Shown here one piece after another: positions 2,500-3,290 of a stretch of 5,110 nt of DNA; the stretch's first letter is position 1; every line of letters begins with the position of its first letter. The stretch comes from Candidatus Woesearchaeota archaeon (GTDB lineage Archaea; Nanoarchaeota; Nanoarchaeia; UBA10117; ARS21), in assembly GCA_002686215.1 (NCBI GenBank), contig NZAU01000021.1:1-5110 (forward strand), read 5' to 3'. Under the pieces are notes generated by a model. It was given only the letters and a program-made list of their open reading frames with translations. It was not told where the DNA came from and searched no databases. The position numbers and the translations under genes were made by a program.

Positions 2500-2808
2500 A
2501 TGTTACCATTGGCTGGTATGTTATTCAACGTGGTCGCTGGACTTGTAGTTGATAAAGCACAAGACTTGGCAAAAGACCATGTTGAAAAGATGATAGATGA
2601 TGTTCTTCCAGATAAACAAAGGAAGGAATTAGATAAAATTATCAAGGAAGACCCAGACCATGCTTTCGATAATGCTAAAGATGCATTGATGGGAGCAGTT
2701 GAGGGTAAACTTCCTGTGAAAATGAAAGACGGCAAACTGTTACCGATTGAGATGACAGTCAAAGTCAGATTTGATCCGAATACACAAAAACTTGAGGTGA
2801 TTACATGA
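2500..2808 (+). CDS. Hypothetical protein with hydrophobic N-terminus
   Basis: 102 residues, not recognised. Residues 1-17 (MLPLAGMLFNVVAGLVV) form a short hydrophobic or amphipathic helix without preceding basic residues, so it is more likely a membrane-touching helix than a cleaved signal. A Lys/Asp-rich helical stretch follows (18-52), then a region that looks like beta strands (GKLPVKMKDGKLLPIEMTVKV, 69-89, read in two halves). AAAGGA (2489-2494) lies 5 bases before the ATG. The TGA stop at 2806 overlaps the ATG of the peroxiredoxin at 2805 as ATGA, indicating translational coupling. It may be membrane-associated; no catalytic motif is visible. Confidence 0.75.
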   Translation: MLPLAGMLFNVVAGLVVDKAQDLAKDHVEKMIDDVLPDKQRKELDKIIKEDPDHAFDNAKDALMGAVEGKLPVKMKDGKLLPIEMTVKVRFDPNTQKLEVIT

Positions 2809-3290
2809 GAGTTCCACAAAAAGTATTTAAGACCAGAGAAAATGATGAGTGGGTAGATAAAACCACTGATGATTATTTTGCAGGTAAAAACGTATTGTTA
2901 CTTTCGTTGCCTGGTGCATTTACACCTATATGAACCAAGCAACATCTTCCAAGGTTGGAAGAACTTTACGATGAAATTATTGCAAAAGGTATAGACGAAA
3001 TTTACTGTATGTGTGTCAACGATGCATTTGTCATGAACGCATGGGGTAAAGAATTAGGTATAGAAAAAGTTAAACTGATTCCCGATGGTGATGGTAAATT
3101 TACTGAAGGGATGGATATGTTGGTACATAAACCAGCTCAGGGTTTTGGTTATAGGAGTTGGAGATATGCCATGACTGTAAAAGATGGAGAAGTTGACAAG
3201 ATGTGGGTTGAAGAAGGTAAAAACCAGTTAGGTCTGGATGATGACCCATACAAACGAACATCTCCTTTAAGAATTTTAGGAGACTTATGA
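2805..3290 (+). CDS. Peroxiredoxin (Prx5-like) with in-frame TGA at the peroxidatic cysteine, probable selenoprotein
   Basis: 161 residues if TGA 2931-2933 is read as selenocysteine (residue 43). Peroxiredoxins reduce H2O2 and organic hydroperoxides through a peroxidatic Cys in the motif PxxxTxxC. Here the motif reads P36-G-A-F-T40-P-I-[TGA43], followed by TKQHLPRLEELY, so the stop replaces exactly the catalytic residue while the frame is intact on both sides. Other Prx5-type hallmarks are YCMCVNDAFVMNAWGK (67-82), LIPDGDGKFT (91-100) and GFGYRSWRYAM (113-123), with R117/R120 as candidates for the conserved active-site Arg. No resolving Cys is seen in the C-terminal part; C68 and C70 are the only cysteines, so it may be 1-Cys-like. 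The ATG overlaps the preceding stop as ATGA, and the TGA at 3288 overlaps the next ATG. A SECIS-like hairpin lies just after codon 43. The alternatives are a nonsense mutation or an assembly error; the exact position makes recoding much more likely. Confidence 0.85.
2931..2962 (+). promoter_or_regulatory. Bacterial SECIS-like hairpin after the in-frame TGA
   Basis: TCTTCCA (2945-2951) pairs perfectly with TGGAAGA (2956-2962) around the tetraloop AGGT (2952-2955). The loop begins 18 bases after the TGA (2931-2933) and has G at its second position. The general bacterial SECIS model asks for an apical loop about 16-37 nt after UGA with a G in the first two loop positions, so both criteria are met. 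In the cell such a hairpin is bound by SelB carrying Sec-tRNA(Sec). The bases also encode the conserved HLPRLEEL, so part of the symmetry could come from coding constraint. Confidence 0.65.

What the first reader, a model, noticed from the sequence alone, without database searches (positions are those of the whole stretch)
2805..3290. Phage peroxiredoxin with selenocysteine (TGA) at the catalytic position
The only in-frame TGA in the gene falls exactly on the peroxidatic Cys of PxxxTxxC (P36, T40, position 43), and Prx5-type homology continues without a break on both sides. ATG and stop overlap both neighbours in the right frame, so the full-length frame is embedded in operon structure. Sec peroxiredoxins are known in some bacteria; I know of no described selenoprotein in a tailed phage, so this may be a new class of viral recoding. 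A Cys-to-Sec change would give a faster, harder-to-inactivate peroxidase during infection.
Basis: partly seen in the sequence, partly recalled or inferred. Interest (0 to 1): 0.95.

Follow-up and report, generated by a model that had tools for sequence, protein, structure and literature searches.

The report
Phage peroxidase with predicted selenium site
A gene in T4-like phages has a UGA stop codon exactly where a peroxide-destroying enzyme has its catalytic cysteine, followed by the kind of RNA hairpin that bacteria use to insert selenocysteine, so these phages are predicted to make a selenium enzyme with a host's machinery, which would likely be the first selenoprotein known from a bacterial virus.

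Summary
Window 2805-3290 is one Prx5-type peroxiredoxin frame (best solved relative: Haemophilus hybrid Prx5, E 5e-46), broken only by UGA at codon 43, the peroxidatic position. An error or a pseudogene is very unlikely. All 14 IMG/VR contigs found by protein similarity have UGA there; pattern scans raise this to 33 contigs in five motif groups. Selection is purifying on both sides, and UGA is an ordinary stop (39 of 112 long ORFs in groups A/B and a relative). A hairpin starting 11 nt after the UGA fits the published bacterial SECIS model; one of 6 bp or more is in 25 of 26 non-redundant UGA genes and 0 of 13 Cys genes. Close Cys relatives exist. Some close relatives lack the gene at a precise empty site. 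In group C it mostly follows a glutaredoxin gene, and the same pair lies on a chromosomal contig of a SAR324 genome that also has SelB and tRNA-Sec; 34 of 41 genomes of that order have SelA. Best reading: a phage-borne selenoprotein peroxidase decoded by the host's Sec machinery. Se incorporation is untested. That the window's own group infects SAR324 is a guess with evidence on both sides.

The parts
2805..3290 (+). Prx5-type peroxiredoxin gene, read with UGA 43 as selenocysteine (161 residues)
2931..2933 (+). in-frame UGA at the peroxidatic position (predicted Sec43)
   Evidence: same codon in 14 of 14 IMG/VR relatives found by protein similarity
2945..2962 (+). hairpin UCUUCCA-AGGU-UGGAAGA; apical loop starts 19 nt after the UGA with G in its second position; fits the bacterial SECIS model
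   Evidence: model constraints from PMC13188914
3006..3008 (+). Cys68, 25 residues after Sec43; invariant in alignment A1; candidate resolving Cys (role recalled from D-type Prx)
2500..2808 (+). upstream 102-aa gene of unknown function whose TGA overlaps the Prx ATG; left edge of the cassette
3287..3751 (+). downstream M15-type endolysin whose ATG overlaps the Prx stop; right edge of the cassette
3894..5108 (+). T4-like family-B DNA polymerase (cut by the window end); marks the contig as a T4-like phage
   Evidence: phrog_262, 5.5e-151

Best explanation
The gene is a phage-carried Prx5-type peroxiredoxin with UGA at its catalytic codon and a bacterial-SECIS-like hairpin just behind it, predicted to be decoded as selenocysteine by the infected cell's own SelA, SelB and tRNA-Sec. 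Steps: (1) shown: one conserved frame with UGA at the peroxidatic codon and a hairpin at the right place; (2) inferred: host SelB with Sec-tRNA binds the hairpin and Sec43 is inserted; (3) inferred: Sec43 attacks H2O2, the oxidised form is resolved by Cys68 or glutathione, and a glutaredoxin recycles it (shown only as a gene neighbour, in group C); (4) inferred: the enzyme protects replication or the cell from peroxide during infection. The gene is an optional one-gene cassette among close relatives (shown). The host of group C is likely SAR324; for the window's group A this is weaker.
For: UGA at the same codon in 14 of 14 contigs found by protein similarity and in 33 distinct IMG/VR contigs in all. 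pN is below pS on both sides of the UGA in 13 of 13 pairs compared; dN/dS after the UGA is 0.03-0.17 in 12 and undefined in L016/L041 (pN 0.178, pS 0.775, saturated); before it 0.06-0.50 over 26 codons. UGA ends 39 of 112 mechanical long ORFs in group A/B contigs and the 66-kb relative, and 17 of 34 in group C, so it is not reassigned. Hairpin geometry (loop 3-5 nt, G in the first two, 18-20 nt spacer) in 26 of 26 non-redundant UGA genes (20 phage, 6 cellular), MFE <= -7.5 in 22 of 26. Strict 6-bp test: 25 of 26 UGA against 0 of 13 Cys, P 1.7e-9, rows not independent. L016 (UGA) and P0076 (Cys) are sisters, 100/99. Order of the SAR324 genome G001: SelA over cut-off in 34 of 41, tRNA-Sec in 32 of 41; G001, which carries the UGA gene, has SelB (377 bits). 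Glutaredoxin plus UGA-Prx shared by phages and G001, 77-80% nt identity over about 720 nt, ending at the module edge. AF2 pLDDT 87, best PDB match hybrid Prx5, TM 0.89.
Against: No protein or selenium data. Four of 26 hairpins miss the published energy limit (L006 -7.2, L007 -7.3, L009 -6.8, L045 -5.7). With a looser, MFE-based definition 19 of 19 UGA representatives but also 4 of 13 Cys genes score as SECIS-like; the strict test was set after seeing that, and at 5 bp 2 of 13 Cys genes pass it. In group A the amino-acid sequence alone makes such a hairpin fairly likely: P 0.12 for the window, 0.38 for L006, also 0.22-0.25 for L016 and L020, though 0.003-0.03 in nine others of the 15 tested. 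The UGA gene is in only 1 of 41 SAR324-order genomes; three others have weak, unexamined matches with one TGA. The window's polymerase has one weak match in those 41. Group A/B/D phages carry a permuted tmRNA while 0 of 41 SAR324-order genomes have the alpha type, which could point to an alphaproteobacterial host. G001 gave no SelA match.
Confidence: 0.88

Rival explanations
1. The UGA is read as tryptophan (code-4-like reassignment or a suppressor tRNA) in these phages or their hosts.
For: Three public full-length relatives (P0002, P0010, P0064) carry W at the catalytic position, as a code-4 gene caller would write it; their codons were not seen.
Against: UGA is a normal stop: 39 of 112 long ORFs in groups A/B with the 66-kb relative, and 17 of 34 in group C. 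A Trp would destroy the catalytic residue. The 11 isolate-phage and 2 SAR324-order relatives read have TGT/TGC there. ARAGORN listed no suppressor tRNA in the 37 sources scanned, which are fragments.
Confidence: 0.03
2. The UGA is a real stop: a premature or regulatory stop that leaves a short 42-residue peptide and a separately started 111-residue C-terminal protein.
For: Public gene calls contain exactly that 111-residue fragment (P0005, P0008, P0117; 276, 93 and 114 member sequences).
Against: The fragments are what a standard-code caller must produce. pN is below pS on both sides in 13 of 13 pairs; the same codon is hit in five motif groups; a downstream product would lack the catalytic residue.
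Confidence: 0.06
3. Sequencing or assembly error, or a decayed pseudogene.
For: The window is an uncultivated contig and raw reads were not available.
Against: 14 of 14 separate contigs, some of them near-copies, have the same codon and no other stop or frameshift; the frame is under constraint; in L116 and L117 the alternative state is a clean absence of the gene, not decay.
Confidence: 0.01
4. Same selenoprotein reading, but the host of the window's group is not SAR324: it is another Sec-using bacterium, for instance an alphaproteobacterium.
For: Permuted tmRNA in group A/B/D phages and none of the alpha type in 41 SAR324-order genomes; Sec-type Prx5 genes also occur in Rhodospirillales-type genomes.
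Against: The Rhodospirillales-type genes form a distant group. The nearest cellular UGA gene is in SAR324 genome G001, and its contig matches that genome in tetranucleotide use (r 0.93 against 0.75 for the other genome).
Confidence: 0.4

Closest known systems
Sec-containing peroxiredoxins of bacteria (TxxU family; reviewed in PMC13188914, passages seen)
   Same: PxxxTxxU motif, Sec at the peroxidatic position, bacterial SECIS directly downstream, Cys homologues
   Different: Carried by a T4-like phage as an optional cassette; the review's text has no occurrence of phage, virus or viral
Haemophilus influenzae hybrid Prx5 (PDB 1nm3)
   Same: Same fold and catalytic motif; glutaredoxin-linked (fused there, adjacent gene in most group C phages here)
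   Different: Cys at the catalytic position; glutaredoxin domain is fused; cellular gene
Cys peroxiredoxins of cyanophages and Pelagibacter phage HTVC008M
   Same: Same family in T4-like phages (35-53% identity in the rows listed of 96 records)
   Different: Cys codon at the site in the 11 records that I read, and no SECIS-like hairpin of 6 bp or more in them; the other 85 were not read
tRNA-Sec genes in huge phages (PMC10747093, passages seen)
   Same: Link between phages and selenocysteine
   Different: The passages report tRNA genes in three phage genomes and name no selenoprotein gene; here there is a selenoprotein gene and no tRNA-Sec over cut-off in 13 phage records (11 with the UGA gene, 2 relatives)
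Prx selenoproteins counted in Sargasso and GOS surveys (PMC1088965, PMC2398784, passages seen)
   Same: Marine, TxxU, bacterial SECIS; some of the 43 and 253 sequences counted may be these phage genes (inference)
   Different: No phage assignment: the word phage does not occur in either text

Membership tests
Bacterial-type selenoprotein gene | in-frame UGA at a redox position where homologues have Cys | tested here: met
Bacterial-type selenoprotein gene | bSECIS: loop 3-9 nt, stem 4-16 bp, G in the first two loop positions, 16-37 nt spacing, MFE <= -7.5 (constraints from PMC13188914) | tested here: met
   window: loop AGGU, 7 bp, spacing 18, -8.4 kcal/mol; across the family geometry 26 of 26, energy 22 of 26
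Bacterial-type selenoprotein gene | UGA otherwise a stop in the same genome | tested here: met
   frames ending at 2808, 3290 and 3751 end in TGA
Bacterial-type selenoprotein gene | host encodes SelA, SelB, SelD and tRNA-Sec | tested here: inconclusive
   met in part for the SAR324 order as a candidate host (SelA 34/41, tRNA-Sec 32/41, SelB searched only in G001 and G002; SelD not searched), but the host of group A is not shown
Bacterial-type selenoprotein gene | selenium in the protein | not testable with these tools
   needs 75Se labelling or mass spectrometry
Prx5 (D-type) peroxiredoxin | Redoxin fold and P-x3-T-x2-C/U motif | tested here: met
Prx5 (D-type) peroxiredoxin | second Cys that can resolve the peroxidatic residue (+25, as recalled for plant PrxII) | tested here: met
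   Cys at +25 in 25 of 26 non-redundant UGA genes, Tyr in L045
Prx5 (D-type) peroxiredoxin | peroxidase activity with thiol or glutaredoxin reductant | not testable with these tools
   only the glutaredoxin gene neighbour in group C
Auxiliary metabolic gene of a T4-like phage | lies among phage core genes, absent from some close relatives | tested here: met
   DNA polymerase, UvsX, clamp loader; empty site in L116, L117, L126

The most novel reading that the evidence does not exclude
T4-like phages carry a true selenoprotein: a Sec peroxiredoxin cassette, with or without its glutaredoxin, that moves between phages and SAR324 bacteria and is made only in hosts that can insert selenocysteine, so that the phage depends on the host's selenium metabolism. 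It would be the first selenoprotein described in a bacterial virus.
Probability: 0.8. Interest if true: 0.88.

Novelty: new variant of a known kind. Interest (0 to 1): 0.82.

Why it matters
Virus selenoproteins are known to me only from a few eukaryotic viruses (recalled). A tailed phage that uses UGA as Sec would tie infection success to host selenium status, would add selenoproteins to the auxiliary metabolic gene repertoire, and would mean that environmental selenoprotein counts may include viral genes. It also shows a blind spot: standard-code gene calls contain a 111-residue fragment that lacks the active site, so peroxidases of this kind are easily missed in phage annotation. It is testable at once in a laboratory E. 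coli strain.

Tried and rejected
Rejected readings: UGA as Trp, premature stop, sequencing error (see rivals). A 100-nt fold also pairs the stretch around the UGA (z -2.7); this was not pursued, because the local hairpin is what recurs in relatives. Host by tRNA content and by the window's DNA polymerase in SAR324-order genomes (1 weak match in 41, 27% identity) led nowhere. Host by tmRNA points away from SAR324. Tetranucleotide correlation of the phages themselves with SAR324 was weak (0.42-0.73) and is not used. The contig with the cellular UGA gene was doubted, because its permease is as like those of the order of G002 (labelled Legionellales; best 56% apart from G002's own 87%) as those of the SAR324 order (best 57%, most 42-51%); composition of the 16-kb contig speaks for SAR324, while the 5.5-kb contig L058/L177 stays undecided (0.65 against 0.66). 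A check with a second gene of that contig did not complete.

Counts and dropped rows. One search gave 39 stretches: 32 real Prx genes and 7 chance matches (L017, L027, L028, L032, L039, L040, L046). With L013 this makes 33 distinct IMG/VR contigs, by motif: A 8, B 6, C 15, D 3, E 1; the groups are mine, and the tree does not support each as a clade (L006 falls outside the rest of A, L045 groups with Cys rows). Those scans ask for TGA, so only (14 of 14) and one search are free of that choice. One search gave 16 glutaredoxin loci: 9 with Prx, 9 of 9 TGA (7; L026 and L035), and 7 without Prx in the stretch held. One search gave 36 stretches, of which 26 are Prx genes by my reading. The tree left out L013, L014 and L015, merged 5 duplicates, and used 5 of the 24 distant cellular UGA genes and 11 of 120 listed homologues (9 Cys, 2 W). 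The hairpin test left out L014 and reduced 40 UGA rows to 26. One search looked at 17 polymerase relatives: no Prx motif in any stretch held, but only 9 of the 17 hold the endolysin start where Prx would lie; L001 and L003, also among the 19, have it.

Literature: 10 searches in an open-access library; no listing showed a phage selenoprotein (one search showed 25 of 82 papers, 12 of 14, the others all). Twelve papers were opened with find only: passages of ten seen; two had no occurrence of phage, virus or viral (PMC9312934, PMC5330540). No paper was read whole. Most subscription papers and preprints are not held.

Full report
WHAT IS IN THE WINDOW. The 5110 bases are a piece of a T4-like phage: dUTPase, Hsp20, an M15-type endolysin and a family-B DNA polymerase (phrog_262, 5.5e-151) on one strand. 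At 2805-3290 lies one frame of 161 codons whose only internal stop is TGA at 2931-2933. Pfam Redoxin (2.4e-25) and the Haemophilus hybrid Prx5 structure 1nm3 (4.7e-46) align through it, the latter with no gap, and the TGA falls on the peroxidatic Cys of P36-x3-T40-x2-43. An AlphaFold model made with C at 43 has mean pLDDT 87 and pTM 0.87; its best solved match is again 1nm3 (TM 0.89, 50% identity).

IS THE UGA REAL AND TRANSLATED THROUGH. A search by protein similarity in IMG/VR gave 14 contigs; 14 of 14 have TGA at this codon and no other stop, though several are near-copies. Pattern scans for TGA at this motif raised the total to 33 distinct contigs in five motif groups: A (the window's own, 8), B (6), C (15), D (3), E (1). 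In 13 of 13 pairs pN is below pS on both sides; dN/dS after the UGA is 0.03-0.17 in 12 pairs and undefined in L016/L041 (pN 0.178, pS 0.775); before it, over 26 codons only, 0.06-0.50. UGA is a normal stop: 39 of 112 mechanical long ORFs in group A/B contigs and a 66-kb relative without the gene, and 17 of 34 in group C. Three public relatives have W at the site (P0002, P0010, P0064), as a code-4 gene caller would write UGA; their codons were not seen. Public gene calls also hold a 111-residue fragment that starts after the UGA (P0005, P0008, P0117).

THE HAIRPIN. Starting 11 nt after the UGA, 2945-2962 folds as 7 bp with loop AGGU, -8.4 kcal/mol (11 of 200 shuffles of that 47-nt stretch fold at least as well). 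The published bacterial SECIS model asks for a 3-9 nt loop, 4-16 bp stem, G in the first two loop positions, 16-37 nt spacing and -7.5 kcal/mol or lower (PMC13188914, passages). The window meets all of these. Among 26 non-redundant UGA genes (20 phage, 6 cellular), 26 meet the geometry and 22 the energy limit; L006, L007, L009 and L045 miss it. By a loose MFE-based definition 19 of 19 UGA representatives and 4 of 13 Cys genes qualify. A stricter test made after that (loop at 19-21, 6 bp or more, one bulge or mismatch allowed) is passed by 25 of 26 UGA genes, the miss being the cellular L071, and by 0 of 13 Cys genes from 11 phage isolates and one SAR324-order genome; at 5 bp it is 26 of 26 against 2 of 13 (P 1.7e-9 at 6 bp; rows are related, so this overstates independence). 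The groups use different stems (CUUCCA/UGGAAG in most of A-C; other pairings in D and E). Against this: under random synonymous recoding the window's protein sequence gives an equal hairpin in 12% of draws, L006 in 38%, L016 and L020 in 22-25%; in L007, L043, L049, L038 and L062 it is 0.3-1%. Within groups A and B the four scorable degenerate codons in the stem are all invariant, against 23 of 77 elsewhere (P 0.011).

CYS AND SEC EXCHANGE. In a tree of 57 rows the Sec label needs 10 changes. UGA and Cys genes are mixed at short distance; L016 (UGA) and P0076 (Cys) are sisters with 100/99 support, and one Cys row, P0004, falls inside the starred A/B group. All 96 phage records matched in the phage collection were below 60% identity, and the 11 that I read have TGT or TGC.

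AN OPTIONAL CASSETTE. Of the DNA-polymerase relatives, L116 (96%), L117 (95%) and L126 (80%) lack the gene. Homology to the window stops at 2810 and resumes at 3287 in L116 and L117, with the same ATGA overlap at the junction; no Prx motif was found elsewhere in the 66-kb contig of L116. Of the 17 new relatives checked, 9 hold the start of the endolysin, and none of the 9 has Prx before it, while L001 and L003 do.

PARTNER AND HOST. In 9 of 15 group C contigs (L020, L021, L025, L026, L030, L031, L035, L036, L037) a glutaredoxin gene was found just before the UGA-Prx, and alignment shows it in L043 too; it was not detected in L015, L016, L033, L041 and L042, some of which are cut there. The same pair is found in contig L049/L158 of SAR324 genome AG-404-P05 (a single-cell genome by its name, recalled), between unrelated bacterial genes; alignment with phages runs over about 720 nt at 77-80% identity and ends with the module. 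The contig's tetranucleotide use fits that genome (r 0.93; own contigs 0.90-0.95 apart from one 6-kb piece at 0.55) better than the comparison genome (0.75). In the tree this cellular copy sits among phage UGA genes. The same genome has SelB (377 bits) and tRNA-Sec (57.5 bits, over cut-off), but no SelA match; in its order SelA is over cut-off in 34 of 41 genomes and tRNA-Sec in 32 of 41. The UGA gene was found in only 1 of the 41; three more have weak matches with one TGA inside, not examined. No tRNA-Sec over cut-off is in 13 phage records, which may be fragments. The inference is that the phage relies on the host's machinery. For group C, SAR324 is a likely host. For group A it rests on kinship of the gene, and the permuted tmRNA of group A, B and D phages, not found as alpha type in 41 SAR324-order genomes, leaves an alphaproteobacterial host open.

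MECHANISM. Shown: conserved UGA at the active site, SECIS-like hairpin, Prx5 fold (predicted model), Cys at +25 in 25 of 26 UGA genes, glutaredoxin neighbour in one group. Inferred: SelB-dependent Sec insertion; Sec43 reduces peroxide; Cys68 or glutathione resolves the oxidised form; glutaredoxin recycles it. The advantage over Cys (speed, resistance to over-oxidation) is recalled chemistry, not tested.

NOVELTY. Ten searches of an open-access library listed no phage selenoprotein. A 2026 review of prokaryotic selenoproteomes has no occurrence of phage, virus or viral in its text. [quoted passage not shown] PMC10747093 reports tRNA-Sec genes in three huge phages but names no selenoprotein in the passages seen; PMC5513705 mentions a viral SelA. 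I therefore rate it a new variant of a known kind: a known enzyme and known recoding in a new carrier.

Noticed in passing
window 844-1049 (+): manA RNA (RF01745), 54.0 bits, just under the gathering score of 55.2, E 4.1e-12, between the 73-aa gene and the Hsp20 gene.
   Followed up: no
L006 13557-13874, L008, L009 3850-4248, L038, L044: Permuted tmRNA genes in group A, B and D phage contigs (ARAGORN; RF04321 in L006, L009 and L038), with tags such as ANNNDYTSAQYALAA; alpha type not found in 41 SAR324-order genomes.
   Followed up: partly
L006 3305-4459 (+): Full ammonium transporter gene (PF00909, 1.3e-100) in a group A phage contig.
   Followed up: no
L044 9544-9927 (-) and L023 8268-9338 (+): Group D contigs carry an IscU/NifU-type protein and a PnrA-like substrate-binding protein.
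   Followed up: no
L151-L157: Phage contigs of 5 to 117 kb have the glutaredoxin gene without the peroxiredoxin in the 3-6 kb seen, followed by replication genes.
   Followed up: partly
L056, L060, L071, L079, L081 and others: A separate, distant group of UGA Prx5 genes in Reyranella, Enhydrobacter and other Rhodospirillales-type genomes, a Rokubacteria and a Betaproteobacteria assembly, with their own hairpins.
   Followed up: partly
L058 / G002 contig 42: A contig binned as Legionellales matches the SAR324 contig L049 at 87% over 4.5 kb; G002 has no SelB or tRNA-Sec over cut-off, so it may be misbinned.
   Followed up: partly
G008, G013, G014 (SAR324 order): Weak Prx-like matches (E 4e-6 to 9e-4) with one TGA inside the frame; possibly other selenoproteins.
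   Followed up: no
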